Shown piece by piece: positions 10,086 through 64,000 of a stretch of DNA of 64,000 bases. A model generated the notes under the pieces. The model did no database searches, had not been told where the DNA came from, and saw only the letters and a program-made list of their open reading frames with translations. The DNA comes from Mycobacterium sp. MS1601 (lineage in GTDB: Bacteria; Actinomycetota; Actinomycetes; Mycobacteriales; Mycobacteriaceae): NCBI RefSeq assembly GCF_001984215.1, contig NZ_CP019420.1, positions 5,084,001 to 5,148,000 on the forward strand. Reading direction: 5' to 3'. Position 1 is the first letter of the stretch, and each line of letters begins with the position of its first letter. Position numbers and translations under genes: made by a program.

Positions 10086-10094
10086 AGCGCCAGG

Positions 10095-41451: not shown

Positions 41452-41644
41452 GCGTGCGCGCTACGGCGCCGCGCGGACCGACGTCCGCTCGCATGTCTGC
41501 GGCCACTGCCTGGTTCGCTTGCTCGGTCGGGGATGTCGCGAGTGTTTCGCTGCCGCAGGCGTCATGGGCACGCATGACGGTCCTGTTACGAGTCACTCCA
41601 CTGGCCACGGATCGGTTGCGAGGGTCTTCTGCATGGGTTAGAAC

Positions 41645-41661
41645 TGTTCTACAACTCAACA
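41645..41661. promoter_or_regulatory. 17-bp palindrome TGT-N11-ACA, site 2
   Basis: TGTTCTACAACTCAACA lies 54 bp before the binding-protein ATG. The TGTTCTACA half matches the half-sites at 45938-45947 and 49283-49292 on the opposite strand. Confidence 0.5.
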
Positions 41662-41714
41662 GTACGGCGAAAATGAGCAGTCTATTGAGGTACACCCCCA
41701 AAAGGAGCCAGAGC

Positions 41715-44486: not shown

Positions 44487-44601
44487 CCGTATTCGACGAC
44501 GCCCCGCCCCGCTTCGTGGCTGCACCGGCCTGTTCGGCCAAGCCAGTGTTGCGACCGCGGGCCACCGACGTGCGCACACCACCGGTTCGAACGACCCAAG
44601 G

Positions 44602-45675: not shown

Positions 45676-45998
45676 GACGGCCAGTTGTTCGTCGGACTTG
45701 TGGCGTGTCTGCGGCAAATGTCAACTGCTCCAGAACCCCTATGGATTCGACGCCGACGGTCTTCGGCAAATTCGATCGCTCCTGCTCGACAGGGACTACG
45801 TGGTTCAGTGGATTCTTTGATTGCCGTACGCGGGCAACGTTGTTCGCCGACGACAAGTCGATTGCTGAAGCTGCAAGTCGTGTCGGCACTCGCGGATGAG
45901 CGGCCTTGCCGAGTCATAGGAATGAGGTACTGTTCATCTGTGGAACAATCGAGCAGAAATGCGCGGTCACTATTTGGTGGTCCTAGCTGCCCTCAGTC
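45676..45998. other. Intergenic region upstream of the kinase gene
   Basis: 323 bp without a credible gene; it contains the palindrome at 45931-45947. Confidence 0.55.
45931..45947. promoter_or_regulatory. 17-bp palindrome TGT-N11-ACA, site 3
   Basis: TGTTC-ATCTGTG-GAACA lies 51 bp upstream of the kinase start. Confidence 0.55.
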
Positions 45999-48479: not shown

Positions 48480-49169
48480 TCAGCCGGTCGCCTGTGCTGA
48501 CCGCCGGATCTGCATGGATTGGCGAACGAGGTCGCGGTTTTCATTGATGATCGCCGCGATCTTGTTCTCCGCCACCGCCGCGTCGCGACTCTCGAGTGCC
48601 TCGACGATCGAAATGTGCTCCTGCTCGATCCCACTGACGTCCTCGTACTCGTGCTGATCGATGGAGAGCACCAGAAGGAAGTATCGCAATTGTGTACTCA
48701 AGTGCTTGTACACCCCACTGAGATAGGCGTTGCCGAGCAAATCGATCACCGTCTGATGGAGAGCAAGATCGGCCTCGACGATCCGGGTGGGGTCATGCGA
48801 GCCCAGCACCTCGCGGAAGTCCTCCAGGGCGCGTTTCACGGCGGACAAGTCCGTCTCCGGTCCGACAGCCCGGGCGGCGAGGCACTCCAGGTGGAGTCGA
48901 GCCGCATAGAGGTCCAAGATCTCCTCATCGGAGGGATCCCAGACGGCCATGCCGCGGCGCTGATGCTGACGGATCAATCCGCCGGCCTCCAACAGGCGAA
49001 CGGCCTCACGAACTGTGTTGCGGGAGATGCCGAGCGACGTCGACATCGTGCTCTCGTTGATGCGTTCGCCTGGGAGCAGGGCACCGCTCAGAATCATGTC
49101 TCGAATACCGTCGGCGACCTGCTGGGACGTGGTGACGTGAGACAAGGTCACGAAGTCGGCAGCTTCCAC
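48480..49169 (-). CDS. GntR-family regulator, FCD domain
   Basis: A 229-aa protein from GTG 49169; the frame extends to 49271 but those codons look random. N-terminal winged helix: SQQVADGIRDMILSGALLPG, INESTMSTSLGISRNTVREAVRLLEAGGLI. C-terminal FCD ligand domain (about 85-225) has metal-site residues in ARLHLECLAARAV, EADLALHQTVIDLLGN and EQEHISIVEALESRD. It is the probable local regulator of the 37588-50096 island. ACTGTATAACTAT lies just upstream and may be its own operator. Confidence 0.92.
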   Translation of the reverse strand: MEAADFVTLSHVTTSQQVADGIRDMILSGALLPGERINESTMSTSLGISRNTVREAVRLLEAGGLIRQHQRRGMAVWDPSDEEILDLYAARLHLECLAARAVGPETDLSAVKRALEDFREVLGSHDPTRIVEADLALHQTVIDLLGNAYLSGVYKHLSTQLRYFLLVLSIDQHEYEDVSGIEQEHISIVEALESRDAAVAENKIAAIINENRDLVRQSMQIRRSAQATG

Positions 49170-49275
49170 GTGCCCCACTGTATAACTATGGAGCCCGCGG
49201 GCGCTAACACTGTGCATTCTGACGCTGCCCTGGCCCCGGGAAGTCCGCAACTGAATTCCCGCTTGCATCATCGAT

Positions 49276-51270: not shown

Positions 51271-52761
51271 ATGGCCCAGGTGAGTCTTGATCGCAGTACC
51301 TTGGAGCGGTTGATGGGCATCATCCAACAACTGGGGATCGGCGCAGATCTCGACGATATTCTCGAGCAGATCTGCGTCGCGGTAGTGGACATCATCGGAT
51401 TCCAAGCTGTCGCCATCAATGTTGTGACCGGATCCGGGGAACTCCGGGTTCGTACCGTCCTGGGTCCGCCGGAGTTGGAGAGTCTGGTTGGCGGCACTTT
51501 GTCTCAGGAAGGCTGGCTGTCGCTGCTGGACGACAGCGAGCCGTGGGGGGAGCTCCGCTTCCGTAGGTCGCCAGAGTTGGATGAGTCGGTCCCTCACGTC
51601 GATCCGTGGCAGCAGCGCTTGGCTGCCCACCCGCCCAGCAGTGTGCCCGCCGAGGTTGAGCCGTGGCGGCCGGAGTTTGCGCTGCTGGTTCCGCTGTGGC
51701 GCAGTGGCCACCTACGGGACCTCCTGGGTGTGATCAGTGTGGATCTTCCCAGATCGGGACTCACCCCCGATTTTCAACAGCGTGCCCTTCTGGAATTGTT
51801 CGGAAAACAGGCCGCCGCAGCCATCTCACGCGTTCATGCCTTCGATCTGGCCACTGACAAAGCTAATCTGTACCGGGAAGCCTTTGTCGCATCACCGGCG
51901 CCGATGTTGGTGCTCGACTCGGACTTGTGTGTCACCGACGCCAACACCGCGTTCACGGACATGTCCGACGCCATCTCCGACGAGGTTCTCGGTCACTCGA
52001 TCGCCGACCTCGTTGCCTTGCATGACTTCAACCAGACCAAGGCGTCCCTGCAAACCCTCGGTATCCACGACGAGGCCCTCGTGGCCGACGAGTGCGCACT
52101 GCTCCACCCCCGAGGCCACGCCTGGGATCGGTGGGTTCAGGTGCAGGCACGCCGAGTAGACAGTGGTGAATCTGGGCGACACTATGTGTGTCTCATTGCC
52201 GATCGAACCAATGTGCGCCAGTCGATGAACGCGCTACGGCAGCGCGCCGACTACGACCAACTGACAGGGTTGTACCTGCGTGCGGTGGGGATGGACCACC
52301 TCAATGCCTGGTGCCTTTCAGTGGGGGAGGACCTCGCACAGCAGGACCCCCAGACCTCACTGGCCGTGCTGTACTGCGATCTGGACAACTTCAAGCATGT
52401 CAACGACACCGACGGGCACCGGGCGGGCGACGACGTGCTCGTGGAGGTCGCGCATCGGTTGCGGCAGTTCACCGATCCGAGCGATATCGTATGCCGTTGG
52501 GGTGGTGACGAATTCGTGCTCATCGTCAGGCGCCGCGGCATGAAGGCCATCGTTGACCTCGCCCATCGACTCGTTGCCGCAGTGCAGGCGTTGGCGGCGG
52601 CGGCCGCTACCGGCACAGCTACGAGGATCCTCGCCCTGTCCATCGGTATTGCCGAGTTCACCCCTCCCGCTGACCCGGCCGCCGTGCTGGAAGCCGCTGA
52701 CGGTGCCCTCTATCGAGCCAAGAACGATGCGCATCAACGGGTTCACCTGCACACGCAGTGA
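51271..52761 (+). CDS. GAF-PAS-GGDEF diguanylate cyclase
   Basis: A 496-aa protein. N-terminal GAF-like domain (about 1-190: DDILEQICVAVVDIIGFQAVAIN), PAS domain (about 200-320: LYREAFVASPAPMLVLDSDLCVTDANTAF) and GGDEF domain (about 330-490: DQLTGLYLRAVGMDHL, YCDLDNFKHVNDTDGHRAGDD, RWGGDEFVLI). The GGDEF motif is intact, so c-di-GMP synthesis is expected. The inhibitory R-x-x-D site is absent (DPSD precedes the motif), so product inhibition is probably weak. No TM segment, so it is cytosolic. Confidence 0.94.
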   Translation: MAQVSLDRSTLERLMGIIQQLGIGADLDDILEQICVAVVDIIGFQAVAINVVTGSGELRVRTVLGPPELESLVGGTLSQEGWLSLLDDSEPWGELRFRRSPELDESVPHVDPWQQRLAAHPPSSVPAEVEPWRPEFALLVPLWRSGHLRDLLGVISVDLPRSGLTPDFQQRALLELFGKQAAAAISRVHAFDLATDKANLYREAFVASPAPMLVLDSDLCVTDANTAFTDMSDAISDEVLGHSIADLVALHDFNQTKASLQTLGIHDEALVADECALLHPRGHAWDRWVQVQARRVDSGESGRHYVCLIADRTNVRQSMNALRQRADYDQLTGLYLRAVGMDHLNAWCLSVGEDLAQQDPQTSLAVLYCDLDNFKHVNDTDGHRAGDDVLVEVAHRLRQFTDPSDIVCRWGGDEFVLIVRRRGMKAIVDLAHRLVAAVQALAAAAATGTATRILALSIGIAEFTPPADPAAVLEAADGALYRAKNDAHQRVHLHTQ

Positions 52762-52818: not shown

Positions 52819-53655
52819 TTAGGAATACTCGAGGTGGAGATCAAGAGGCAATGAGCTGTAGTGCTTCTGGTGAAGGTCCAGAGCGTCGTGGAGACCGCCG
52901 AGAACCGACAATGCGGTGATGGTGGCGTGGCCGCACAACAATTCGGCAAAGTCGCTTCCCCGCTGTGCCAGGGCTTCCGGTTCGACGGCCCACATATCTG
53001 CGTGATAGCGACCGGGAGTGAGCGCCCGGGTCTCGACTCGCGCGCCGGTCCAGTCGCGGCGACCGACCGAGCACAGGACTACCCGACTGGAGTCATCGGA
53101 GTGGGGCAGGTTCAGGTTGAGCAGTCCGCCTGTGGGTAGTTCGTTCCGAAGAACCCAATGTACCAGTGTTACAACATAACCGATATGAGGGAAGGAATCG
53201 GGCGCACTGGCCAGGAACGGGATGTCGGGTTCGGATCCGTGTTGAGAGACCGCTATGGCAGGCACTCCCAGCAGCGCGGCTTCTGCGGCGGCGCCGACTG
53301 TGCCCGAGTAGTGGATGTCGTCGCCGGCATTGGCCCCGTGGTTTATTCCGGATACGACGAGATCGAAGTCGGGCAACAGATCAGCCAGGATTGCGGCGCG
53401 CACACAGTCGACCGGGCTACCCGAACACGACCACGACGTCTCGGGAAGGGGGATCGCACGGCGAGTGAGACGCAACGGCACAGCAGATGTGTGGACAGAA
53501 TGACTTCGACCACTGTGGTTTCTGTCGGGAGCGAGCACTGTGACTTGGCATCCAGAACGTGTCAATGCCTCGGCCAGCAGGGCGAGTCCGCCTGCGTCGT
53601 ATCCGTCGTCATTGGTCAGCAGTATCTTCGGGGCAGCACCGATGCGAGCGGTCAC
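52819..53655 (-). CDS. surE: SurE-family 5'/3'-nucleotidase or phosphatase in the BMC operon
   Basis: A 278-aa protein. SurE signature: ILLTNDDGYDAGGLALLAEAL (metal-binding Asp-Asp), LAPDRNHSGRS, WSCSGSPVDCVRAAI and LVVSGINHGANAGDD. SurE enzymes hydrolyse nucleotides and other small phosphate esters with divalent metal. GTG 53655 starts 2 bp after the GntR stop, so it is the last gene of the kinase-side unit. In this context it may dephosphorylate surplus phospho-amino-alcohol, which is inference. The extra C-terminal part is longer than in E. coli SurE. Confidence 0.9.
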   Translation of the reverse strand: MTARIGAAPKILLTNDDGYDAGGLALLAEALTRSGCQVTVLAPDRNHSGRSHSVHTSAVPLRLTRRAIPLPETSWSCSGSPVDCVRAAILADLLPDFDLVVSGINHGANAGDDIHYSGTVGAAAEAALLGVPAIAVSQHGSEPDIPFLASAPDSFPHIGYVVTLVHWVLRNELPTGGLLNLNLPHSDDSSRVVLCSVGRRDWTGARVETRALTPGRYHADMWAVEPEALAQRGSDFAELLCGHATITALSVLGGLHDALDLHQKHYSSLPLDLHLEYS

Positions 53656-53657
53656 GT

Positions 53658-54434
53658 TCAGGTGACCTGGCGTTTGATGTGTGCGGGGCTCGACGTGTGC
53701 ACCGTGATAGCCATACGGTCGAAGCGGTAGTACTCCAGGCTGGTTTCGAAAGGCTCGCCGGACTCCAGGAGCGCGGTCCGCTGGACGACGAGGACGGGGG
53801 ATCCCGGTGAAAGTTGCAATGTCTGCGCCTGTTTGGAGTCAGCGGGCGCTGCGGTGATGGTTTCGGTGGCTTCACCACGTTTGATGGCATACCGTGATTC
53901 CAGAAGTTCGTACAGTGATCCCACCAGTGACTGATCGAGAAGTCCGGGGAACAATTCAGCTGGGACATAGACTGTCTCGACACTGAGCGGAAGGCCTCCG
54001 GCGAAACGGGCGCGTTCGATCTTGTAGACATGAGCGTCACCGGTGATCTTGAGGCGCTTGGCTACGTCGCTGTCGGGACGGATCACTCCTGTCCCGAGAA
54101 TAGTGGTGCCGGTCTCGAGGCCTTGTGCCCGCAGATAGGCGGGGAGTCCGACCAGCTGATCCAGGTCGCGCACCAGCTTCTTGGATGCGACGAACACTCC
54201 GCCGCTGCGACCGTGCGTTCTGATGATGAGGTTGTCTGTCTCCAGCTCTTCCAGCGCCTTGCGCACCACCCACCTCGTGACGCCATGGAGCGCGGCCAGT
54301 TCCCGTTCGGCACCGATTCGAGCGCCGGGCTCAAGGGCTCCTGTGCTGATAGCGGTTCGAATTTCCGTGGCCAACTTGGAGACCGCGGCGTCTCTGTTCT
54401 CTTGCTCTGGCCCAGAAGACTCTCGTGCTGGCAT
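53658..54434 (-). CDS. GntR/HutC-family regulator with UTRA domain (BMC locus)
   Basis: A 258-aa protein from ATG 54434, preceded by GGAGG; a TTG at 54464 would lie inside the operator. Winged helix: LATEIRTAISTGALEPGARIGAERELAALHGVTRWVVRKALEELE. UTRA effector domain (about 95-255): YLRAQGLETGTTILG, VYKIERARFAGGLPLSVETVYVP and EYYRFDRMAITVH across the pocket. UTRA proteins bind small ligands such as amino sugars or amines. A perfect inverted repeat lies 25 bp upstream. The M. smegmatis RMM locus also has a GntR regulator at this end. Confidence 0.93.
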   Translation of the reverse strand: MPARESSGPEQENRDAAVSKLATEIRTAISTGALEPGARIGAERELAALHGVTRWVVRKALEELETDNLIIRTHGRSGGVFVASKKLVRDLDQLVGLPAYLRAQGLETGTTILGTGVIRPDSDVAKRLKITGDAHVYKIERARFAGGLPLSVETVYVPAELFPGLLDQSLVGSLYELLESRYAIKRGEATETITAAPADSKQAQTLQLSPGSPVLVVQRTALLESGEPFETSLEYYRFDRMAITVHTSSPAHIKRQVT

Positions 54435-54458
54435 TGTTGCTGACCTCCGATACTCGTC

Positions 54459-54485
54459 ATCCAACCATAGCCGATTCGGTTGGAT
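54459..54485. promoter_or_regulatory. Inverted repeat ATCCAACC-N11-GGTTGGAT, candidate GntR operator
   Basis: Perfect 8-bp arms separated by 11 bp, just upstream of the UTRA-GntR start. CAACC/GGTTG half-sites recur at 62567-62583 and 62962-62981 around the permease promoter. Confidence 0.6.
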
Positions 54486-54646
54486 AAATGGTCGAGCAGT
54501 CGGCGAAGCTCAACTCGGGTACGGCAACCTGACCGAAACCGAACCGACGTATTCTGCACTGCGCCAAGGGCTCCGCCACCTTCGCCCTTGCGCGGAGATC
54601 ACGGAGCCCTGTTGCCAGTGCCTGGTGGACGCGGTGATTCCCTTGA

Positions 54647-55633
54647 TTAGTTGTTGATCCCGGGTAGGAAGGTGCCGGCCAAGTACCGCTCCGCCACTTC
54701 GCACGTTCCGGCGGCGTAGTCGTCTCCGAGTTCATGGGCCAGGTCGGCCTCGGGATGGGTTCCCAACCATGCGAGAAGATGAAGGCGGCGCAGGAAAACC
54801 AAGTGCGGGATGGCTTGGAAGTCTTCGGCGGAGAGCTGCCTGACCTCGGTGTATCCCGCCAGCCAGGCGGTGACAACCTTGTCGACGTCAGGTTGGTGCT
54901 CGATGAGTGTCGTTGAGCTACAGAGGTCCCACAGGTACCAACTGAATCCTGAGTCATCGAAGTCGATGACCCAGACGTCGCCGTCGGCGCTCTTGAGGAG
55001 ATTGGCCGCACGCAGGTCGCAATGCACCAGACCCCCGCGGGCATCGTCGGCTCGATAGTCCTGCAGATTGCGCCGCACTTCGGCCTCGGCGCGCCGCAAC
55101 AACTCGGCGCGCTCATCGGTCACGCCCGGGCCGTCGATCCATTGACCCCAGACCGCATCGGCGCCCAGCACTCCATCGAGATCCCAGCGTGGCCGGGTGA
55201 ACCATGATGGTCTGGACCAGTTTTCGACATGGTGGTGCAGCAGCGCAGCTGTGCGGCCCACCAGGCTGAACGTCGCTAAGTCGTCGGACTGCGGCTCGCT
55301 GCCCGGAACGTGTTCGAACAGCGCACATGCCCGCACCTCGTCACCGGATTGCACCCAGACGAAGAGTTCGCCGTCAAGGGTCCGCCGGATGCCTGGGGTC
55401 TTGATAACACCGTCTTCGCGCAGTGACTCGATCCAGGCGAGTTCGGAGCGTACGGCGTCGGTACTCTGGTTGTCTTTTCGGTAGACCCGCAGCACGCCGA
55501 GCGGTCCGCCGTCCTCGACCAGAAACGTGGAATTCTCCGAAGTGCTGATCAGGCGCGGCTTGGCAGCGGGTGGTAGTTCATACCTCTCGAGGGCCAGCCG
55601 CGCAAACATCTCATCGTTGCTCAAAGCGGGCAT
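54647..55633 (-). CDS. 1-amino-2-propanol kinase-like protein (RMM signature kinase)
   Basis: A 328-aa choline kinase/APH-fold protein. ATP lobe: STSENSTFLVEDGGPLGVLRVYRK. Catalytic loop LVHCDLRAANLL (H-x-D-x4-N), metal site WVIDFDDSGFSWYLWD. In M. smegmatis the RMM kinase phosphorylates (S)-1-amino-2-propanol with ATP, making the substrate for a phospho-lyase. It begins 3 bp after the BMC-T gene, so it is part of the shell operon. No obvious encapsulation helix at either end. Only weakly similar to the island-1 kinase at 45999-47108. Confidence 0.9.
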   Translation of the reverse strand: MPALSNDEMFARLALERYELPPAAKPRLISTSENSTFLVEDGGPLGVLRVYRKDNQSTDAVRSELAWIESLREDGVIKTPGIRRTLDGELFVWVQSGDEVRACALFEHVPGSEPQSDDLATFSLVGRTAALLHHHVENWSRPSWFTRPRWDLDGVLGADAVWGQWIDGPGVTDERAELLRRAEAEVRRNLQDYRADDARGGLVHCDLRAANLLKSADGDVWVIDFDDSGFSWYLWDLCSSTTLIEHQPDVDKVVTAWLAGYTEVRQLSAEDFQAIPHLVFLRRLHLLAWLGTHPEADLAHELGDDYAAGTCEVAERYLAGTFLPGINN

Positions 55634-55636
55634 TGC

Positions 55637-56359
55637 CTACCTACCTTCCAATGATTGGAGCACGGCGATGATTTCCTCGCCGGCGATACGCACTTCCTCG
55701 GGCGGGCCCGCGATGAAGACTCGTCCCGACGCACCGATCATCTGAACATCGACGAGAGTCAACTTGGCGGAAGCTCGTTCGGCGCTGTTTGCTGCTACTG
55801 CGGCAAACAACGCCGGTGCCATTTCGACCACCAGCATCGACATGCCGGGCAACAGCATCGATGCATCGCGGTTGCGGTTCTGGATCACCGCGTGTTGGTC
55901 CCCGATATCGTCGATCACGTCGTAGTAAAGCACCGTGGGTTTGAGCTGATCGCCTGGTGCTGCACCGATGCTACGAAGAATGGCTTCACCGGCCCGACGG
56001 ACATGCTCGACCTGTTTGCTGTGCACCTCGAGAATGCCGTATTGCCGTTCGACATACAGCAGGCCGGGGTCCACCTCGGGGGCGGCGCGTAGTGCCACGT
56101 CGATGACGCGGTGAATAGCCAAGGCCGGTGCAATCTCGACGATCAACGCGAAGTCGCCTCGTTGCGGAGGATAACCGCGTGCACGCGTCGGCGTTGCGAG
56201 GTAGGCGGCGAATTGGCTCTGCAGGCCGTCGATGGGTAGGTACACCCGCAACTCGGTGCGATGCACGGAGCCGCTGGCGCCATTCGACGTCGGTTTGTCT
56301 GCGACGGACTTCACGTCCGCCGCAGGCTTGGTGGCGATCTCTTTGGGCTGGGCTGTCAT
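55637..56359 (-). CDS. BMC-T shell protein (tandem BMC domains), long N-terminus
   Basis: A 240-aa protein with two BMC domains in tandem (about 35-135 and 140-238), forming trimers that tile as pseudo-hexamers. Visible parts: LRVYLPIDGLQSQFAAYLAT, GDFALIVEIAPALAIHRVIDVALRA split across the first domain, and PGMSMLVVEMAPALFAAVAANSAER in the second. An extra flexible N-terminus of about 32 residues ([18 protein letters not shown]) is absent from the sister BMC-T at 57391. It overlaps the BMC-H stop by one base. Confidence 0.94.
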   Translation of the reverse strand: MTAQPKEIATKPAADVKSVADKPTSNGASGSVHRTELRVYLPIDGLQSQFAAYLATPTRARGYPPQRGDFALIVEIAPALAIHRVIDVALRAAPEVDPGLLYVERQYGILEVHSKQVEHVRRAGEAILRSIGAAPGDQLKPTVLYYDVIDDIGDQHAVIQNRNRDASMLLPGMSMLVVEMAPALFAAVAANSAERASAKLTLVDVQMIGASGRVFIAGPPEEVRIAGEEIIAVLQSLEGR

Positions 56360-56640
56360 CAGTCGTTGCCGCTTACCGAGAAGTACTTGCCGAGATCCTG
56401 GTGGGGCCGGGGGATCACGTGAACAGACACCAGTTCGCCGATGGACGAGGCGGTTTCGGCGCCCGCTTCAGTGGCCGCTTTCACTGCGCCGACGTCACCC
56501 TGGATGACGATTGCCACCAAACCATCGCCGACCTCTTGACGACCGACCAGTGTCACGTTGGCGGCCTTCACCATGGCGTCGGCGGCGGCCAGTGAAGCCA
56601 CGTACCCACGGGTCTCGATCATTCCGATTGCATTGCTCAT
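56359..56640 (-). CDS. BMC-H shell protein
   Basis: A 93-aa single BMC-domain protein: [49 protein letters not shown] across the beta sheet, and the C-terminal [16 protein letters not shown]. Six copies form the hexagonal tile; the pore loop is near GRQEVGDG. It is the only BMC-H visible, so it is likely the main facet protein. Confidence 0.97.
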
Positions 56641-56660
56641 TGCTATCGCCCTTTCGTAAT

Positions 56661-56942
56661 CTACTGCGGTGGAATGGCTTCGGCAGAGGTGCCGGAGCCG
56701 GCTGGAGGTTCGTCGATAACCCCGACGATCATGGCATCCAGCGGTGCCTTACCTGAAAAATGTTGTGCCACTGCTGATCCCTGTGTGACGAGAACGCGGT
56801 CGCCGGGTCCGCTGCCGAGGGTGTCCACAGCCACCAGGCGTTTCCCCGATCCGGCGCACTGCACTTCCAAGAGTGCAACGGGCGGAAAAGGGTCCACACG
56901 TTTGGTCGCCCAGACCGGGCCCACCACAGTGGCGACGAGCAT
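56661..56942 (-). CDS. BMC-P vertex protein (EutN/CcmL family)
   Basis: A 93-aa protein with [47 protein letters not shown] and [10 protein letters not shown], the EutN/CcmL pattern. Pentamers of this protein cap the shell vertices. It starts where the 150-aa gene ends (shared base at 56942). Confidence 0.96.
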
Positions 56943-57394
56943 CAGGTCTCCCTTACGATGTCGACGCCCAGTTTCCGAGCCTTCTCACGGGCCAGCGGTG
57001 TCAGAACTGCTCGTGGTGACACCACGATGGCTCGGTTGTCCGCCGCTGCGGCCGTGACGATCTTTTCGGTGACCGCACCGCGCTCGACGCGGACCGCCGC
57101 AGAGCTGTCGACTGATGCCGCAGCGGAGAGCGGGCGTTGGGCGTCCGGCGATGTCTGACTCAGACGGAAAGAGATGGTGCCGCGGCGGAGTCGCTGCGAC
57201 TGGAGTGGATCATCGAGCATCGTGATGATGGTGTGTACGAAGTTGGATACATCACCGTCGGTAGCCAGCACCACGGTGCGGAACTCCGGAACTGTCGGGG
57301 AGCTTTGCTCCGGTTCGGCCGCAGCAGGAAGTGACTCGATGATGAGTTCACGAATCATGGCCCTGAGTTCTTGGGCACCTGGTTGGGCTGTCAT
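56942..57394 (-). CDS. Unassigned BMC-locus protein with N-terminal encapsulation-like helix
   Basis: A 150-aa protein overlapping the upstream BMC-T gene by 4 bp (ATGA). Residues 5-20 (GAQELRAMIRELIIESLP) form an amphipathic helix like the C-terminal tails of the aldehyde dehydrogenase and the edge PLP enzyme. A Pro/Ser linker (about 21-35) precedes a compact domain of alternating strands and helices, ending in TEKIVTAAAADNRAIVVSPRAVL and LAREKARKLGVDIVRE. The last part resembles the C-terminal segment of EutT/EutQ-type accessory proteins only loosely. It may be a scaffold, assembly factor or minor cargo; no catalytic motif is visible. Confidence 0.85.
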   Translation of the reverse strand: MTAQPGAQELRAMIRELIIESLPAAAEPEQSSPTVPEFRTVVLATDGDVSNFVHTIITMLDDPLQSQRLRRGTISFRLSQTSPDAQRPLSAAASVDSSAAVRVERGAVTEKIVTAAAADNRAIVVSPRAVLTPLAREKARKLGVDIVRET

Positions 57395-57996
57395 GACAGA
57401 CCTTCCAGCAGCGCTTCCGCGGCGTCGGCGGCGGCGCGGACGGCGTCATGTGGGCCGGACAGGTACACCCGCCCGGTCGCGCCCATCATGCGGTAGTCCA
57501 CCACTTTGATCTGGCTGGCCTTCTCGGCCTCGTTGGTGACCAGGATCGCGTAGGACGACGGCTGCATCTCCATCACGAAGAGGGATTCACCCGGCAGGAT
57601 CATCGATCCGGACTTGTTGCGATTGATCAGGAAGGCGTGTTCCTGGTCGATGTTGGTCACCAACCGCGATGCCAAGACTTCCGGTTTGCGGGCGTCTTGT
57701 TCGGTGACACCGAGTTCGGCCAGTACTGCGGCACCGGCTTGACGCACGGATTCAGGTGAGTGCGAGTGAATTTCGAGGTATCCGAACTGCCGCTCGACGA
57801 CGAGCATGCCGGCGCGGACCTCGGAGTGTTTGAGTGCCACATCGGTGAGCGGTTCGATGTCCAGACCGGGTGCGATCTCGATGATCTGAGCTGCCATGTT
57901 GGTTCGTGGCAGGCTGCCACGGACAATGGTGCCGAGGTAGCACATCGTTTGCGGCTGCAGCTTGTCGATGAAGATGAAGGAGCGGAGGTCGGCCAT
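57391..57996 (-). CDS. BMC-T shell protein
   Basis: A 201-aa tandem-BMC protein: LRSFIFIDKLQPQTMCYLGT, QIIEIAPGLDIEPLTDVALKHSEV split across the first domain, LVVERQFGYLEIHSH and ESLFVMEMQPSSYAILVTNEAEKA in the second. It is a paralogue of 55637-56359 without the extended N-terminus. Two different BMC-T proteins with one BMC-H and one BMC-P is the shell set reported for the mycobacterial RMM compartment. Its ATG overlaps the aldehyde dehydrogenase stop by one base. Confidence 0.94.
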   Translation of the reverse strand: MADLRSFIFIDKLQPQTMCYLGTIVRGSLPRTNMAAQIIEIAPGLDIEPLTDVALKHSEVRAGMLVVERQFGYLEIHSHSPESVRQAGAAVLAELGVTEQDARKPEVLASRLVTNIDQEHAFLINRNKSGSMILPGESLFVMEMQPSSYAILVTNEAEKASQIKVVDYRMMGATGRVYLSGPHDAVRAAADAAEALLEGLS

Positions 57997-59569
57997 CAGC
58001 GTGTACCAATCAGGTTTCGAAGCTCTTCGAACACAATCGCGCGAAGTTCATCTCGCAGTTCCGCTTTCTCGATTGTGGTGGGGTGGGATTCGGTGCGGGT
58101 AGCAGGGTGGGTGGGCTTTGTCGCCGTCTCGCCCAGGTTCGACGGCACCGGGTAGGCGGGAGCGGCAAGTTGGTGATTGGTGACCGTGGCGCGTAGCGCG
58201 TCGTCGAAATCGGGCAGGCGGACAGCGGTGCTCTGGCTGAAGGCGGTCACGCTCCACTGCACCAGGTGATCGGGGGTGAGATTGTCACCTGTCGAGCTTC
58301 CGCCACGGAAGCCGGTCCCGACGGACAGCGACATCGGCAGCGTGGTGCCCATCCCGGCGTTTCCCTTGCTGCCGGGCACGTTGACGGAGATCCGGTGTGC
58401 GGAAAGCGCTTTCGAGTACTCCAGGATAACGTTCGGGTTGTTGCTGTGGATCACCGCGGAGTGACCTGTGCCCGCGATGCGTAGCAGCGAACGTGCATCC
58501 CGGATTGCCCGAGCCACATCTGGGACCCGCAGCATCGCCAGGATGGGGGAGAGCTTTTCGTGCGTCAGAGGTTCTTCGTCGACCACGCTTTGGATCGGTG
58601 TGATCAGTACTTTCACCCGGGTGCCCACTCGGAAGCCGGCGCTCTCGGCAATGGCAGCCGCGGAACGCCCGACAACCTTGGTGTTGAAGCGGCCACCAGG
58701 GTAGACATAAGCCCGAATCTTCTCGGTCTCATCCGGGGTGCAGATGTAACCGCCGTTCCTGACCAGTTCTGCTTCGAGACGATCAGCGATCGAGTCGACA
58801 GCCAGCAACAGCGATTCGGCGGTACAGAGCACGGAGTTGTCGAACGACTTCGATTCGATGATGTCGGATGCAGCTTGCGGAACATCCGCAGTCGCATCCA
58901 CCAGCACCGGCGGATTCCCCGGTCCGACTCCGATTGCGGGTGTCCCGGAGTGATAGGCCGCGCTGACGACTGCGCCTCCGCCGGTGGCCAGGATGAGGTT
59001 GACTCTCGAGTCGCCCATCAGGTTCTCGATCAAGGGGACGGTCGGTCTCTCGATCACTTGGATGGCCCCTTGCGGCGCACCGGCTTCCACTGCCGCCACA
59101 GCCAGAACATTGGCCGCTTCCACGCAGGTCCGGCGTACCGCCGGGTGGGGACTGATGACCACCGCGTTACGGGTGAGCATCGCGGAAAGCACTTTGAAGT
59201 ACAGGGCTGCCACCGGGCTGGTCGAAGGGGTCACGGCGAAGATCACCCCGGCCGGTCGGGGAAGCGGACCTGTCGGCCCTCGATGTCGATCTGGGTGGTG
59301 CAAAGGTCCCGGCTGCCGTACTCGTGGATGAATCCTCGGGAGGCAGTGCGGTTCTTGGCCTCTTTGTCGTCCACCACGCCGAAGCCGCATTCGTCGACCG
59401 ACATCTCGGCGAACCTGCGGGCGTTCTGGTAACCGGCCTCGGCGACGGCATTGACGATCTTCTGTACAGTAGCAAAGTTATACTGATCAAAAAGCGTTGA
59501 TGCCCAACGTGCTTGGTCCAGCTTGGCCTGCGCCGCGGCCAGCTGCAGTAACGGGGTCCGGTCTTCCAC
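57996..59569 (-). pseudogene. CoA-acylating aldehyde dehydrogenase (PduP-like), BMC cargo, frameshifted
   Basis: GTG 59569 starts a frame (MEDRTPLLQLAAAQAKLDQA) that breaks at about 59258. The GGGG at 59258-59261 (CCCC on the coding strand) needs one more base, after which RFPRPAGVIFAVTPSTSPVAALYFK joins the two halves. The remainder has the PduP/EutE core with catalytic Cys in NSVLCTAESLL, cofactor loop ATGGGAVVSAA and a C-terminal tail ending LRDELRAIVFEELRNLIGTR after a Pro/Thr linker, a typical encapsulation peptide. Restored length 524 aa. It would convert propionaldehyde to propionyl-CoA. Decay seems unlikely in an otherwise perfect operon. Confidence 0.92.
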
Positions 59570-60858
59570 TAGCTCGCCTTCCGGTGTGTCTTGGTGAACT
59601 CGTCATTGGCCTCGCTGACCGCGGTGTGGAGTCGGGACAGCACCTCTTCGGTGAGTGCCGGGTCGTACAGCACCCCGGGCTTGAGCTGGAGCACGCTGTT
59701 GTCCAGGGTGGCGAAAATGGCCCAGATGCCGTTGCGGTACAGGGTTTCCATCACGGCGTTGCCTCCTCTGGGATGGGCAAACTCCAGACCGATCACCAAT
59801 CCGAGCTGTCGGACTCCCACGACGAATTCGGGGAAGTCGGCTTGGATGTCGGCGAGCCCCCTGCGGAAGGCTTCAGCAATGTAATGCGTGGTGGTGCGTG
59901 TCTCGGGACGGTTGAGGATGTTGAGCACCGACAGGGCTGCGACGCAGCCTAGTTCGGCACCGCCGAAGGTCGACATGTGGCCGAATCCATCTTCGTGCAG
60001 CCATTTGGAGCTGGTCTCGTTGGCGATCACGGCACCGAGGGGGTAGAGCCCTCCGCCTAGGCCTTTACCTGTCACGATCATGTCGGGCACGAAGTTCTCG
60101 CGCTGGATGGCCCACATTTCCCCTGTGCGCATGAGGCCGGTCTGGACTTCATCGGCAATGTACAGCGACCCGTGCTGCTCGCACAGTTTTTTCACCGTGC
60201 GGAGGTAGTCAGGCAGTGGTAGGGGAAAGCCGTATGTTGCCGGGACGGTCTCCAGGATGACGGCCGCGACGTCTCCGGCCCGCAACACCCGCTGCATCGC
60301 CTCGATGTCGTTGAAGGGTACCTGGACGAAGTCGTGGGGCTGATCGGAGAGGAACAGTTCGGAGAATCGGCGGTCGCCGGTTGCCACGGCGAGTCCGGTG
60401 TGACCGTGGTATGCGCGCTCGATGGAGACGATCTTGCGCCGTTGGGTAGCGTGCCTGGCAGATTTCAGGGCGATGTCGACGGCCTCGCCTCCACCACTGC
60501 CAAACATCACCTTCGACAATCCGGTTGGTGCCGAAGCCAGTAGGGCTTCCGCGCACGCGGTTCGCGCGAGTGCGGGGAAGTGGTGGTTGCCGACGTCGAA
60601 ATGTTCGAGTGCGTCACGGACGGCGCCAACGATTTCGGGATTGCGATGTCCGAGGTTGTACGTCCCGCCATTGAGGTGCATGTCGATCAGGCGCTTGCCA
60701 GACATGTCGTGGAGGAAGTATCCCTCGCGCCTGTCGATCACCAGGTCGACATTCGAGTCCACCCAGAATTGTGTCTTGGCGGGGTTCCAGTACTCGGCTG
60801 ATTTGTCGAGGACCTCGGCCTTCGACTCATACTGAAACAACCCGTACTGGTGGGCCAT
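59569..60858 (-). CDS. Class-III aminotransferase (BMC operon)
   Basis: A 429-aa fold-type I PLP enzyme: FGSGGGEAVDIALKSARHAT, ERAYHGHTGLAVATGD, IADEVQTGLMRTG and VTGKGLGGGLYPLGA with the Schiff-base Lys. The GKGLGGG motif is that of genuine omega-aminotransferases, unlike the GKPMGNG enzymes in this window. No encapsulation helix at the C-terminus (TKTHRKAS). Probably transaminates an amine or amino ketone feeding the pathway. Its stop overlaps the aldehyde dehydrogenase GTG by one base. Confidence 0.92.
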   Translation of the reverse strand: MAHQYGLFQYESKAEVLDKSAEYWNPAKTQFWVDSNVDLVIDRREGYFLHDMSGKRLIDMHLNGGTYNLGHRNPEIVGAVRDALEHFDVGNHHFPALARTACAEALLASAPTGLSKVMFGSGGGEAVDIALKSARHATQRRKIVSIERAYHGHTGLAVATGDRRFSELFLSDQPHDFVQVPFNDIEAMQRVLRAGDVAAVILETVPATYGFPLPLPDYLRTVKKLCEQHGSLYIADEVQTGLMRTGEMWAIQRENFVPDMIVTGKGLGGGLYPLGAVIANETSSKWLHEDGFGHMSTFGGAELGCVAALSVLNILNRPETRTTTHYIAEAFRRGLADIQADFPEFVVGVRQLGLVIGLEFAHPRGGNAVMETLYRNGIWAIFATLDNSVLQLKPGVLYDPALTEEVLSRLHTAVSEANDEFTKTHRKAS

Positions 60859-60990
60859 TGGTCGCGACTCCTTCTGTCATAGGTGCGCTCGTAGGGGGGA
60901 ATGTGTGGGCGTCAGCGCGGTTGGCCGGGTAAGTCAGCCTTCTCGACGATCCGCGCCGACGCCGCTCACCAGATGTTCTGGTGGAAGCTG

Positions 60991-62535
60991 TCAGGATGTC
61001 GATTCGCCGACCGGCGGGTTTCGATCCGGTTCGCTGTCCCTGTCGATATGCAGTGCCCGTTCGACTTTGGCGGCGTCGTGATCGACGCGGCCGCGGGTCA
61101 TTGCGTACTGCTCTTCCGGCGACAGGACCAGCCGCTTCCTGCCCACCAGTGCGAAGTACAGGATCGCCAGCAGATAGGCAATGGCGATGCCGACGACACC
61201 GGCACGGTTGGCTGGGTTCCAGAACAGTGCCACGCCCATGACGAGGGACAGGATGCACGAGATGATGGCACCGGGGGTTCCGAGCCGGCTCACGAAGGGC
61301 CGGTCCACATCAGGCATGGACCGTCGCAGGATGATGAACGAAACTGCTTGCATCACATAGGCAATTACGGCTCCGAAAACCGACATCGACAGCAGTGCAG
61401 CGCCAACCGACCCACTGCCGAAGTAGTAGAGGAGGGCGGCCAGTCCGTAGCCGACCACGGAGCCGGCGATCAAGCCCGCGTGCGGAGTGTGTCGCTTGCC
61501 ATGCGTCACCGACAACACGGTGGGGTAGTAACCGGCACGAGACAGGGAGTAGATGTTACGGCCGTAGGCGAAGATGACGCCGTGGAAGCTCGAGATCAGA
61601 CCAACCACGGCCAGCAGAGCCAACACCGGTGCGGCTATGGACCCGAAGATCGTAGTGAAACCCTCGTTGAGGGGCTCAGCTGATTCGCCCACCACTGCGG
61701 CACCTGGTGCGGTTCCCGCGCTCAAAATGACCGTGAGGAACGCCATTACGGTCAGCGTGAGCATTCCCAGCATCGTCGCCCTGGGAATCGCCCGGCCCGG
61801 CACATTGGACTCCTCGGCAGTCAGCGGCAGGCTCTCGATGGCCAGGAAAAGCCATGCGGCGAAAGGGATTGCGAAGAAGACACCTTCGACGCCGCTGGGG
61901 AACCAGGCGTTGCCTCCGGGTTGGACGGTGACGTTGAGGGCGTTCTGAAGGTCGAAGTGTGGCAATGCGCCGATCCAGAACACCACCAGGACTGCAAGGG
62001 ACAAGAGGGCCATTGCCAGGGCGAATCGCATGGCTTGTTCCACACCGGCGATGTTGATCAACACGAAGAGTCCGTAGAAGATCAGCCACCACACCGGCTG
62101 CGGCAGTTCGAGTCCGATGGTGGACTCGGCAATGCCGCCCATGTAGCCGCCGATTCCCACGGCCACGGTGGCGGAGGCGCCCACGTAGACGATGGTCTCG
62201 GCGACTCCAGTGATGAACCCACCCCATGGACCCATGGCCGAGCGTCCGAAGCTGTACGCACCGCCGGTGTGTGGCATTGCCGCAGACATCTCGGCCACAC
62301 ACATGGTGAGCGTCATGTACAGGGCGAAGGCGACCAGCACGGCGACGAGCATGCCGCCGAAACCGCCTGCAGTGAGGCCGAAGTTCCAGCCAAAAAAGTT
62401 CCCGGAGATCACCGTGGCTATTGCCAGGCCCCACAGAGTACCTACGCCGGCATATCGCCGGAGTTGCCGCTTCTCGAAATATCCCTGCTCAGCATGGCGG
62501 TAGGTCACCCCCTGGGGGTCCTTCGCATCAGCCAT
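60991..62535 (-). CDS. APC-superfamily amine permease (ethanolamine permease-like)
   Basis: A 514-aa membrane protein from ATG 62535 with 12 hydrophobic segments. GVGTLWGLAIATVISGNFFGWNFGL in TM1 and ALYMTLTMCVAEMSAAMPHTGGAYSFGR in TM3 are split by short loops; SFHGVIFAYGRNIYSLSRAGYYP is the ethanolamine/EAT-family signature. The cytoplasmic tail is acidic. It probably brings in the amino alcohol or amino ketone substrate of the compartment. A promoter and operator-like half-sites lie just upstream. Confidence 0.92.
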   Translation of the reverse strand: MADAKDPQGVTYRHAEQGYFEKRQLRRYAGVGTLWGLAIATVISGNFFGWNFGLTAGGFGGMLVAVLVAFALYMTLTMCVAEMSAAMPHTGGAYSFGRSAMGPWGGFITGVAETIVYVGASATVAVGIGGYMGGIAESTIGLELPQPVWWLIFYGLFVLINIAGVEQAMRFALAMALLSLAVLVVFWIGALPHFDLQNALNVTVQPGGNAWFPSGVEGVFFAIPFAAWLFLAIESLPLTAEESNVPGRAIPRATMLGMLTLTVMAFLTVILSAGTAPGAAVVGESAEPLNEGFTTIFGSIAAPVLALLAVVGLISSFHGVIFAYGRNIYSLSRAGYYPTVLSVTHGKRHTPHAGLIAGSVVGYGLAALLYYFGSGSVGAALLSMSVFGAVIAYVMQAVSFIILRRSMPDVDRPFVSRLGTPGAIISCILSLVMGVALFWNPANRAGVVGIAIAYLLAILYFALVGRKRLVLSPEEQYAMTRGRVDHDAAKVERALHIDRDSEPDRNPPVGESTS

Positions 62536-62566
62536 GTCGGTTCTCCCTACTCTCAATCGTGGTCAG

Positions 62567-62583
62567 CCAACCCATTGACAACC
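62567..62583 (-). promoter_or_regulatory. CCAACC half-site pair downstream of the BMC promoter
   Basis: CCAACCCATTGACAACC holds two direct CAACC half-sites, 32 bp upstream of the permease ATG, matching the arms of the GntR palindrome at 54459-54485. Confidence 0.4.
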
Positions 62584-62596
62584 AAATGACGACCTT

Positions 62597-62626
62597 ATCC
62601 TGAATGGTCGAAGTGAACTGTGTCAA
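62597..62626 (-). promoter_or_regulatory. Candidate promoter of the BMC operon
   Basis: On the minus strand a consensus TTGACA (62626-62621) is followed after 18 bp by CAGGAT (62602-62597), which has the A2 and T6 needed for a SigA-type -10. The CCAACC half-sites would lie just after the start point, as suits a repressor. Confidence 0.4.
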
Positions 62627-62961
62627 GGGACACTGTGTAATTGGGAGTCAAAGCTCTGATCAAGACTCCATGCACCGCCCCGCACGGTAGGGCCGCGCCG
62701 TACCCGGCAGTGGCGTGGTGCGCCCGTGTCCCGAATCGGAAGGCAGTCAGGAACTGCGCACGCTGGTGCCATAGCGCGTGATCAAGACACGAATCATGGT
62801 TATTTCCAGCATGTTTCTGCGCGAGTTACTCAGAGATGAGGAGGTTACACACTGAGATCTCCGCACTGCGCAGAGCAGAGGAAGTCCTCAGCTGCGTCCG
62901 CTGAGGATCATTGTTTGGTAGTCCGTGGTCGCTGGGGCCGGTGGTTCGATACAGGCAACGC

Positions 62962-62981
62962 CAACCATTAGTAATTGGTTG
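62962..62981. promoter_or_regulatory. Inverted repeat CAACC-N10-GGTTG
   Basis: CAACCATTAGTAATTGGTTG, with 6-bp arms CAACCA/TGGTTG, resembles the GntR palindrome at 54459-54485 (spacer one base shorter). It lies between the permease and the edge PLP gene. Confidence 0.45.
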
Positions 62982-63118
62982 ACGACGAGTGGTGGTCCCC
63001 CTGGCAATCGGTCAGCGGCAACTTGACCCGCGGCCACGACGACTTCGGGGCGAGGACCATCAGGGGGGTCATGCTGTGTGCGGTGCCACCGCACGCAGCT
63101 CCATACCCGATCGCGGTT

Positions 63119-64000
63119 CTAGACCAGGTTCTTGTCACCGATGAGTCCGAGAAGCTCTTCCTTGACGAATCGCCGGAGGTCCTCACGCAGGTAGCCACCA
63201 GCACTGTTGGCCGGCCGCGATGTGGAGATGGTCCTGGCGACAAACTCGAATTCGGTCAGATATCGGTCGACATCGGATTGGTCGAAAACCAACGGTGGAC
63301 GCACTTTGATGACATTGCCGAACTGCCCCGCCATGCTGGTGATCACCTTGCGGTGACGTAGTTCGTTGACAAAAGCGGAGGCCGTTTGCGGATCCGGGGT
63401 CTTGGTTTCAAGGTCGCCGACAAACTCGACACCCATGTACATCCCGGCGCCACGGACGTCGGCCTGGACCCCGCTGTCAGCGATGATGCGACGCATGCCG
63501 TGCAGAAGCTGTGTGCCCTTGTCTTGGGCATTGGCGATCAGATTTTCGTCGCGGATGACTTCGAGGACGGCTCGGGCGGCTGCAACAGGTGCATTTTCCC
63601 CGCCAAAAGTGTTGAAGTACGCCACATTGTCGCCGAAAGACTCGACCACCGGCCGTCGGCAGACGACGCCACCGATAGGCATACCGTTGCCCATCGGTTT
63701 CCCCATCGTGATGATGTCGGGGACCACGTTACTGCGCTGGTATCCCCACATCGCTGCCCCGGTGCGGCCGAACCCCGTCTGTACCTCGTCGCTGATGAAC
63801 AGACCTCCGGCTTGGTGCACAGCTTTGACAGCCGGCCCGAGTACGCCGGAGTCGGGGTAGATGCCATCCGAGGAGAAGAGGCTGTCGGCGACAAGAGCGG
63901 CAACCTTGACGCCGTGACGGCGCAGGTCGTCGATCTGGCGTTGGACTTGTGCGGTGAACCATTCGGCCAGCCCATGATCTGTACGGCGGAAGGTGTCCGG
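63119..64000 (-). CDS. Class-III PLP enzyme with C-terminal encapsulation peptide (partial), probable phospho-lyase
   Basis: The frame is open from the right edge to a stop at 63119 (293 codons visible; N-terminal part off the window). It has ISDEVQTGFGRTG and MGKPMGNGMPI (Schiff-base Lys), the GKPMGNG form of the AGXT2L/phospho-lyase branch, and strongly resembles the island-1 enzyme at 47105-48454. After the catalytic domain a linker (STSRPANSAGG) leads to LREDLRRFVKEELLGLIGDK, nearly the same helix as at the end of the aldehyde dehydrogenase. It probably removes phosphate and ammonia from phospho-aminopropanol inside the shell, delivering propionaldehyde to the next enzyme. Confidence 0.9.
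   Translation of the reverse strand, partial: PDTFRRTDHGLAEWFTAQVQRQIDDLRRHGVKVAALVADSLFSSDGIYPDSGVLGPAVKAVHQAGGLFISDEVQTGFGRTGAAMWGYQRSNVVPDIITMGKPMGNGMPIGGVVCRRPVVESFGDNVAYFNTFGGENAPVAAARAVLEVIRDENLIANAQDKGTQLLHGMRRIIADSGVQADVRGAGMYMGVEFVGDLETKTPDPQTASAFVNELRHRKVITSMAGQFGNVIKVRPPLVFDQSDVDRYLTEFEFVARTISTSRPANSAGGYLREDLRRFVKEELLGLIGDKNLV

What the first reader, a model, noticed from the sequence alone, without database searches (positions are those of the whole stretch)
52819..64000. Complete-looking RMM-type microcompartment operon
Shell parts (one BMC-H, one BMC-P, two BMC-T), a kinase, a phospho-lyase-type PLP enzyme, an aminotransferase, a CoA-acylating aldehyde dehydrogenase, a permease and a GntR regulator are collinear on one strand, with 1-4 bp overlaps through most of the core. 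This is the layout of the mycobacterial aminoacetone/1-amino-2-propanol compartment. It belongs to a class without a vitamin B12 or glycyl-radical signature enzyme: the aldehyde comes from a kinase plus lyase. The short-chain dehydrogenase expected for aminoacetone reduction is not in the window and may lie to the right.
Basis: partly seen in the sequence, partly recalled or inferred. Interest (0 to 1): 0.8.

Follow-up and report, generated by a model that had tools for sequence, protein, structure and literature searches.

The report
Aminoalcohol microcompartment operon, phospholyase variant
A mycobacterium carries genes for a protein-shelled compartment that probably breaks down small amino alcohols; it is a rare offshoot of a known type, in which the usual dehydrogenase gene is missing and an extra enzyme carries what looks like the shell's address label.

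Summary
The operon is real. Window 52819-64579 (minus strand, running past the window) encodes orthologues of all four M. smegmatis RMM shell proteins, an aminopropanol-type kinase, a CoA-acylating aldehyde dehydrogenase (AldDH), two class III PLP enzymes, a permease and a GntR regulator. It is not a standard aminoacetone/RMM1 locus. Of 48 shell-related loci compared, 43 have aminotransferase, kinase and short-chain dehydrogenase (SDR), and 2 are cut by contig ends. The window, Rhodococcus jostii RHA1 and one unnamed relative lack the RMM-type SDR and carry an ETNPPL-like phospho-lyase whose C-terminal tail matches the AldDH tail, like a shared encapsulation peptide. The shell tree unites these three, apart from the 22 same-genus loci sampled. 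No SDR lies nearby; a related one (61%) sits 2.1 Mb away. Best reading: a kinase plus encapsulated phospho-lyase route from an imported amino alcohol, probably 1-amino-2-propanol-like, to aldehyde and acyl-CoA. The substrate is unproven. New variant of a known kind; moderate interest.

The parts
63119..64000 (-). ETNPPL-like class III PLP phospho-lyase; continues outside the window to about 64579 (L004:1119-2579, start codon inferred); C-terminal encapsulation-peptide-like tail LREDLRRFVKEELLGLIG
   Evidence: PDB best hits 5g4i phospholyase 1.3e-94, 6tor ethanolamine-phosphate phospho-lyase 1.7e-87; 66, 70 and 79% to G255, RHA1 and G883 copies; tail test; Lys in TMGKPMGNG invariant in 7 of 7 aligned
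60991..62556 (-). APC-family amino acid/amine permease, near the ethanolamine-permease family but below its cut-off
   Evidence: TIGR00908 336 bits, cut-off 381.75; 90% to the permease of the G883 operon
59569..60858 (-). class III aminotransferase-like PLP enzyme of the RMM1 kind
   Evidence: PF00202 3.5e-72; 64-67% to that of 20 of 20 same-genus RMM loci; C-terminus not like the AldDH's
59243..59569 (-). N-terminal part of CoA-acylating aldehyde dehydrogenase (ORF of 108 aa), separate frame
   Evidence: matches the N-terminal part of AldDH in relatives; frame differs from the next part
57996..59258 (-). remaining 420 codons of the AldDH, with the Cys region and a C-terminal encapsulation-peptide-like tail LRDELRAIVFEELRNLIG
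   Evidence: AdhE/EutE-type acylating AldDH hits; tail
57391..57996 (-). BMC-T shell protein (MSM0275 orthologue)
   Evidence: 80% to RHA1 and 81% to G255
56942..57394 (-). 150-aa protein of unknown function with predicted N-terminal helix (residues 7-21) resembling an encapsulation peptide
   Evidence: no Pfam or NCBIfam match, no PDB profile match at E<=1; AlphaFold2 model pLDDT 83, pTM 0.39; at the same place in RMM-type relatives
56661..56942 (-). BMC-P vertex protein (MSM0273 orthologue)
56359..56640 (-). BMC-H shell protein (MSM0272 orthologue)
55637..56359 (-). BMC-T shell protein (MSM0271 orthologue)
   Evidence: no PF00936 match
54647..55633 (-). APH-fold kinase, relative of the RMM aminopropanol kinase
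   Evidence: PF01636 4.2e-19; 6ef6 2.8e-69 with HxD and DFDD motifs aligned; 72% to G883 satellite kinase, 38-41% to same-genus RMM1 kinases
53658..54464 (-). GntR/UTRA regulator
   Evidence: PF07702 9.2e-40, PF00392
52819..53655 (-). SurE-like 5'/3'-nucleotidase, 2 nt after GntR; role in the pathway unknown
   Evidence: PF01975 1.5e-50

Best explanation
This is an RMM-superfamily metabolosome of a separate clade without the RMM-type SDR. Inferred mechanism: the permease imports a small vicinal amino alcohol (most likely 1-amino-2-propanol or a close homologue). The APH-type kinase phosphorylates its hydroxyl group. The ETNPPL-like PLP enzyme, held in the shell by a C-terminal encapsulation peptide, removes phosphate and ammonia to give an aldehyde (propionaldehyde in the case of 1-amino-2-propanol). 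The co-encapsulated CoA-acylating AldDH, with the same kind of tail, turns it into acyl-CoA. Shown here: gene content, orthology, shared tails, shell phylogeny, absence of the SDR from the locus. Inferred: substrate, order of reactions, encapsulation, and the part played by the second PLP enzyme. I take the latter to do the same aldehyde-forming step, because the two replace each other across loci. The assembly's broken AldDH frame must be an error for the compartment to work in this strain.
For: Shell and kinase orthology. Phospholyase best hits. Tail match of the window phospholyase to the window AldDH: 0 of 1000 shuffles reach the score. The same holds for the three related copies (G883, RHA1, G255). 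Five copies away from shell genes show nothing comparable against the window AldDH: G086 901, window 47105 617, L108 794, L109 385, L110 812 of 1000. In RHA1 the AldDH and phospholyase end in the same 31 residues. 43 of 48 loci have aminotransferase+SDR+kinase and no such phospholyase; three have the phospholyase and no RMM-type SDR. The shell tree joins window, RHA1 and G255 at 100/100 (same without two faulty rows). In G883 phospholyase-permease-kinase-GntR stand together without shell genes, so these four form a unit of their own.
Against: The AldDH frame is broken in the assembly. G255 has no kinase hit in the 36 kb fetched, so the kinase is not a constant part of the clade. G255 does have an SDR of another kind (36%) about 2.3 kb beyond its GntR, below the 55% used to count RMM-type SDRs. 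The window kinase is only 38-45% identical to RMM1 kinases and 43% to RHA1's, so its substrate may differ. A hydrophobic-moment test did not separate the tails from controls. Against the RMM1 AldDH tail of L044, two tailless controls match over 6-8 residues better than most shuffles (L109 6, L110 26 of 1000). No activity or localisation data. An SDR related to the RMM one exists elsewhere in the genome.
Confidence: 0.65

Rival explanations
1. Ordinary aminoacetone compartment whose SDR has merely moved: the SDR at G000:C1:3000826-3001590 supplies 1-amino-2-propanol from aminoacetone, and the extra phospholyase is a side gene.
For: That SDR is 61% identical to a same-genus RMM1 SDR, next best 41%. 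RMM1 SDRs of other genera are at the same level, 58-74%. Aminotransferase kept at 64-67%.
Against: It is 2.1 Mb away with no window-type kinase or shell gene in the 20 kb around it. 61% is also the level of the SDRs in three shell-free kinase-SDR-GntR clusters (61-62%) and below the 78-92% within the genus's RMM loci (query's own left out). The tail on the phospholyase is unexplained.
Confidence: 0.22
2. B12-independent ethanolamine compartment: ethanolamine to phosphoethanolamine to acetaldehyde to acetyl-CoA.
For: The second-best solved relative of the phospholyase is named ethanolamine-phosphate phospho-lyase (6tor); RHA1's locus permease passes the ethanolamine-permease cut-off (503.8 against 381.75) and is annotated eat.
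Against: Window and G883 permeases fall below that cut-off (336, 327). One canonical RMM1 locus (L041) also has a passing ethanolamine permease (536.6). All 4 genomes tested have EutB elsewhere, so ethanolamine probably has a B12 route already.
Confidence: 0.2
3. Decaying locus: the SDR was lost and the AldDH is a pseudogene; the compartment no longer works in this strain.
For: Frame break in AldDH, missing SDR, a gene mix seen once in 48 loci.
Against: The other operon genes are open, and the 420 codons after the break hold no stop. RHA1 and G255 lack the RMM-type SDR too and have an AldDH in one frame. An assembly error explains one frame break as well.
Confidence: 0.2
4. The tail-bearing phospholyase handles a different substrate from the RMM1 aminotransferase-like enzyme, and the compartment is bifunctional.
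For: The window keeps both PLP enzymes; hydrolases (M20, SurE) flank the operon.
Against: Only one kinase gene in the operon; RHA1 and G255 do without the aminotransferase.
Confidence: 0.2

Closest known systems
RMM1 / aminoacetone utilization microcompartment (Aaum) of Mycobacterium smegmatis
   Same: Orthologues of the four solved shell proteins and of the solved kinase; the same gene order from aminotransferase to kinase, with the 150-aa protein in the same place, as in 20 same-genus loci. The M. smegmatis locus itself was not read here.
   Different: No SDR between kinase and GntR; permease of another kind on the same strand; added tail-bearing phospholyase, M20 hydrolase and SurE; shell in a different clade; AldDH second part only 48-53% identical.
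Rhodococcus jostii RHA1 plasmid pRHL2 locus (NC_008270.1, about 399-412 kb); R. jostii is counted among RMM holders in PMC4207490 (passages read)
   Same: Shell 65-86% identical per protein, phospholyase 67-70% with the same kind of tail, no RMM-type SDR, kinase, GntR, Eat-type permease.
   Different: No aminotransferase-like gene; part of the shell block duplicated; phospholyase between shell genes; kinase on the opposite strand; permease 39% identical.
Shell-free kinase-phospholyase-permease-GntR operon of an unnamed same-genus genome (G883)
   Same: Permease 90%, phospholyase 76-79% with tail, kinase 72%, GntR 75%.
   Different: No aminotransferase, AldDH or shell genes found in the 35 kb around it; that genome has a canonical RMM1 locus 3.2 Mb away.
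Ethanolamine-phosphate phospho-lyase (ETNPPL) family
   Same: Among the two best solved relatives of the PLP enzyme.
   Different: The window copy has an extra C-terminal tail like the AldDH's.

Membership tests
RMM superfamily of bacterial microcompartments | Shell proteins orthologous to MSM0271, 0272, 0273, 0275 | tested here: met
   (for BMC-H the top hit is a designed tandem fusion, 6ner; MSM0272 is second)
RMM superfamily of bacterial microcompartments | APH-type kinase and acylating AldDH beside the shell genes | tested here: inconclusive
   kinase met; AldDH present but split over two frames
RMM1 / aminoacetone (Aaum) type | Short-chain 1-amino-2-propanol dehydrogenase in the locus (PMC4207490 passages; 43 of 48 loci here) | tested here: not met
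   absent from locus; relative 2.1 Mb away
RMM1 / aminoacetone (Aaum) type | Shell inside the clade of the genus's RMM1 loci | tested here: not met
   the 22 same-genus loci sampled form one side of a branch (100/98) without the window
RMM1 / aminoacetone (Aaum) type | Hydrolases, permease and GntR among the accessory genes (PMC4207490 passages) | tested here: inconclusive
   window has M20 and SurE hydrolases, a permease and GntR, but hydrolases were not annotated in the other loci, so I cannot say whether they are the same ones
RMM1 / aminoacetone (Aaum) type | Growth on aminoacetone or 1-amino-2-propanol, shell particles | not testable with these tools
RMM2 | Diol dehydratase genes in the locus (PMC4207490 passages) | tested here: not met
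   none among the operon genes and immediate neighbours scanned with Pfam; no search with a diol dehydratase model was run
EUT | EutB ammonia-lyase in the locus | tested here: not met
   the one EutB match in the genome lies at C1:4308940
ETNPPL-type phospho-lyase | Closest to known phospholyases rather than transaminases, active-site Lys kept | tested here: met
   5g4i 321 bits and 6tor 298 bits against 162 for the next hit; Lys invariant in 7 of 7 (its role is recalled)
ETNPPL-type phospho-lyase | Phospho-lyase activity | not testable with these tools
   needs enzyme assay
Encapsulation-peptide cargo | 15-20 residue terminal peptide shared with a likely cargo of the same shell | tested here: met
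   phospholyase tail against AldDH tail, 0 of 1000 shuffles; hydrophobic moment alone not distinctive
Encapsulation-peptide cargo | Binding to the shell | not testable with these tools
   needs tail-fusion or co-purification test

The most novel reading that the evidence does not exclude
The phospholyase-permease-kinase-GntR set is a 'plug-in' for RMM shells. In G883 it stands 3.2 Mb from a canonical RMM locus with its tail kept, so it could load its lyase into a shell encoded elsewhere. In the window the aminotransferase-AldDH-shell cassette sits inside it. In RHA1 and G255 the lyase has replaced the aminotransferase. The result is a compartment that takes amino alcohols directly, with a tail-tagged phospho-lyase as signature enzyme and without the dehydrogenase.
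Probability: 0.35. Interest if true: 0.66.

Novelty: new variant of a known kind. Interest (0 to 1): 0.46.

Why it matters
How the RMM compartment makes its aldehyde, and which PLP enzyme does it, is not settled in the papers I could read: PMC4207490 and PMC6620236 (passages) discuss a transaminase. Loci in which a recognisable phospholyase with an encapsulation-like tail stands in for the aminotransferase-like enzyme (RHA1, G255), or beside it (window), are natural tests of a kinase-plus-phospho-lyase route, and include a laboratory strain (RHA1). They also suggest that the SDR is not an essential part of this shell's chemistry, and that a tail-tagged enzyme might be recruited to a shell encoded far away.

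Tried and rejected
SDR to the right: not found in the ORFs of 12 kb beyond the window nor in a genome-wide PF13561 list near the operon. Plasmid copies of the operon: no near match in plasmids. Naming the window's species: not achieved. Plasmid-like contig C4 matches M. abscessus plasmids (90% covered, 98%) and C2 matches mycobacterial plasmids in small part, so 'mycobacterium' is an inference. A named-genome scan with the kinase gave 4 loci, none close (26-27% identity for three, a 26-residue match for the fourth). Hydrophobic moment as a test for the tails: not discriminating. SurE as pathway enzyme: SurE hits also lie in 5 of the 6 loci of a different compartment type fetched (L070, L072, L073, L074, L076; not L071), and not in L098; no step could be assigned. 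Rarity: phospholyase hits at E<=1e-170 in 3 of 351 family genomes and at E<=1e-150 in 2 of 286 class genomes, the window's own genome included in both. Ethanolamine as substrate: weakened by EutB elsewhere in 4 of 4 genomes. Fold of the 150-aa protein: model obtained, structure comparison not possible.

Rows dropped or faulty: seven of 55 loci had a shell hit under 60% and were left out of the 48; an SDR was counted only at 55% identity or more. In one search only the 33 loci with both AldDH parts found are counted. In the tree two loci cut by contig ends (L091, L094) carried the wrong paralogue in the BMC-T columns; the tree was rebuilt without them on 46 loci with the same grouping. Second stretches of one place (L063, L065, L106) and L064, the same place as L078, were not counted as loci. 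L126 went into the tree beside its identical twin. Sampling: of the 45 genomes with a match (the window's own included) 20 loci were fetched with 20 kb, plus those of G883 and G512. Changes made on re-checking: shared RHA1 tail is 31 residues, reach of the rightward reading is 12 kb, the SDR levels of other genera were added (that rival raised from 0.20 to 0.22), main confidence lowered from 0.66 to 0.65.


Full report
What is there. That the genus is Mycobacterium in the wide sense is inferred from plasmid matches. On the minus strand, in transcription order and window coordinates, stand: an M20/carbamoylase-like hydrolase (66199-64907, outside the window), an ETNPPL-like phospho-lyase (about 64579-63119), a permease (62556-60991), a class III aminotransferase-like enzyme (60858-59569), an AldDH in two frames (59569-59243 and 59258-57996), BMC-T (57996-57391), a 150-aa protein (57394-56942), BMC-P (56942-56661), BMC-H (56640-56359), BMC-T (56359-55637), a kinase (55633-54647), GntR (54464-53658) and SurE (53655-52819).

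Shell identity. All four shell proteins match solved RMM shell proteins of M. smegmatis: MSM0275, MSM0271, MSM0272 (a designed tandem fusion scores higher) and MSM0273. The kinase's best solved relative is 6ef6, with the HxD and DFDD motifs aligned. That 6ef6 is the M. smegmatis aminopropanol kinase is recalled; the output only calls it an aminoglycoside phosphotransferase.

The AldDH. The gene is broken in the assembly. The first ORF (108 codons) ends at a stop at 59243, while the remaining 420 codons are open in another frame from about 59258. The second part aligns from its second residue to residue 103 onward of the AdhE chain 6tqh, with no stop. In 31 of 33 loci with both parts found the frame is single; the exceptions are the window and L068, which also has a BMC-T hit in two frames. 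Whether this is an error or a real mutation cannot be told here.

Comparison. 55 loci were profiled with the window's proteins and one same-genus RMM1 SDR. Of the 48 with a BMC-T at 60% or more, 43 have aminotransferase, SDR, kinase and AldDH and no window-type phospholyase; two (L091, L094) are cut by contig ends. RHA1 (L078) and G255 (L062) have the phospholyase but neither RMM-type SDR nor aminotransferase; G255 has an SDR of another kind (36%) nearby and no kinase hit. The window has phospholyase and aminotransferase but no SDR. Against the 20 same-genus loci the window proteins show 64-67% (aminotransferase), 48-53% (AldDH second part), 61-70% and 60-66% (the two BMC-T), 76-81% (BMC-H), 47-56% (BMC-P) and 38-41% (kinase). 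RHA1 gives 56% (AldDH), 80% and 70% (BMC-T), 86% (BMC-H), 65% (BMC-P) and 43% (kinase).

Trees. On 582 columns of the four shell proteins, the window, RHA1 and G255 form one group at 100/100, and the 22 same-genus rows form one side of a branch (100/98) without the window: 48 loci, 46 after removing two rows that held the wrong paralogue. The window's end branch is flagged as long, so its exact place carries some doubt. For the phospholyases, the four tail-bearing copies (window, G883, RHA1, G255) group at 93/92 beside the tailless G086 copy, the six rows together at 100/100 (two of them identical G086 rows); tail columns are filled in 4 of 16 rows and so fall under the 30% rule.

The tail. 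The window phospholyase ends ...LREDLRRFVKEELLGLIGDKNLV and the AldDH ...LRDELRAIVFEELRNLIGTR. No shuffle of 1000 of the phospholyase tail reaches the score of their match; the same holds for the G883, RHA1 and G255 copies against the window AldDH. Against the window AldDH the controls give 901 (G086), 617 (window 47105 copy), 794 (L108), 385 (L109), 812 (L110), 919 (window aminotransferase) and 504 (L044 aminotransferase) of 1000. Against the RMM1 AldDH of L044, the window phospholyase gives 1 and the other three tailed copies 0 of 1000; two controls match over 6-8 residues better than most shuffles (L109 6, L110 26 of 1000). The 150-aa protein's N-terminus gives 24 and 0 of 1000. A hydrophobic-moment score did not tell tails from controls. 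In RHA1 AldDH and phospholyase share their last 31 residues. In the AlphaFold2 model the 150-aa protein has a separate N-terminal helix, residues 7-21 (pTM 0.39, so relative placement is not trusted).

Modules. In G883 the phospholyase (76-79%), permease (90%), kinase (72%) and GntR (75%) lie together without shell genes. G883 has its own canonical RMM1 locus with SDR at about 0.44 Mb, against 3.61 Mb for the module. In G086 a tailless phospholyase and a kinase lie about 10 kb apart in a region with a plain aldehyde dehydrogenase and no shell hit (that dehydrogenase is named by eye from the ORF). The window thus looks like the G883 module with a seven-gene cassette (55637-60858) between permease and kinase. 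Insertion in one line and loss in the other cannot be told apart.

Substrate. The window's permease is near, but below, the ethanolamine-permease cut-off (336 of 381.75). RHA1's passes (503.8), and so does that of one canonical RMM1 locus (536.6), so the permease does not discriminate. EutB is present elsewhere in all four genomes tested. An SDR at 61% to a same-genus RMM1 SDR lies 2.1 Mb from the operon without kinase or shell hits in the 20 kb around it; RMM1 SDRs of other genera are also only 58-74%, so it could be a working substitute. I favour direct uptake of 1-amino-2-propanol or a homologue, with ethanolamine as second choice. The reaction scheme (kinase, phospho-lyase, AldDH) is recalled from the abstract of Mallette and Kimber 2018 (J Biol Chem), which is not held; only its title was seen, in reference lists.

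Literature seen. PMC4207490 (passages): RMM loci in Mycobacterium and R. jostii, with SDR, phosphotransferase, hydrolases, permease and GntR; function unresolved. PMC6620236 (passages, part of the abstract among them): transaminase-based schemes. PMC8217296 (passages, outline and the whole of section 8): RMM1 and RMM2 as types, nothing on this variant in what I read. PMC8007038, PMC6787980 and PMC11346464: passages. Searches for microcompartment with 'phospho-lyase' and bacterial microcompartment with 'phospholyase' returned 0 papers; the library holds open-licence papers only, supplements were not available, and the variant may be described elsewhere.

Verdict. A true RMM-superfamily operon, but of a rare clade without the RMM-type SDR and with a tail-tagged phospholyase, and with a frame break that must be resolved before calling it complete. 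New variant of a known kind.

Noticed in passing
window 39823-48454 (+) with GntR 48480-49271 (-): A second amine catabolic cluster without shell genes beside the operon: aldehyde dehydrogenase, solute-binding protein, ABC permease and ATPase, zinc alcohol dehydrogenase, APH kinase (45999-47108) overlapping a phospholyase-like PLP enzyme without tail (47105-48454), FCD-type GntR. It looks like a cytosolic counterpart of the encapsulated kinase-phospholyase pair.
   Followed up: partly
window about 39 kb to about 75 kb (L004): Third-position G+C is 0.73-0.76 in the three groups of genes chosen here (26 genes) against 0.84 for 15 genes at 0.6-36 kb, so the operon may lie in an acquired or atypical stretch; no tRNA in L003, window 47001-67000.
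   Followed up: partly
window 52819-53655; L070, L072, L073, L074, L076: SurE-like nucleotidase near shell genes both here and in 5 of 6 loci of a different compartment type in related genera (not in L071, nor in L098), e.g. Rhodococcus oxybenzonivorans pRB98 with EutJ, malate dehydrogenase and a HAD hydrolase.
   Followed up: partly
NC_008270.1 401985-407474 (L078): In RHA1 pRHL2 the block BMC-T, 150-aa protein, BMC-P, BMC-H is duplicated with identical protein accessions around the phospholyase; AldDH and phospholyase share an identical 31-residue end. G255 carries two near-identical BMC-H genes.
   Followed up: no
G000:C1:1124954-1127349 (L108): Another kinase with a divergently placed phospholyase-like gene in the same genome, making at least three kinase-phospholyase pairs with those of the window.
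   Followed up: no
window 51271-52761; L004:5223-7580, 7762-8919, 9547-10620: GGDEF/EAL cyclic-di-GMP genes lie on both sides of the operon (the last one by reading the ORF only).
   Followed up: no
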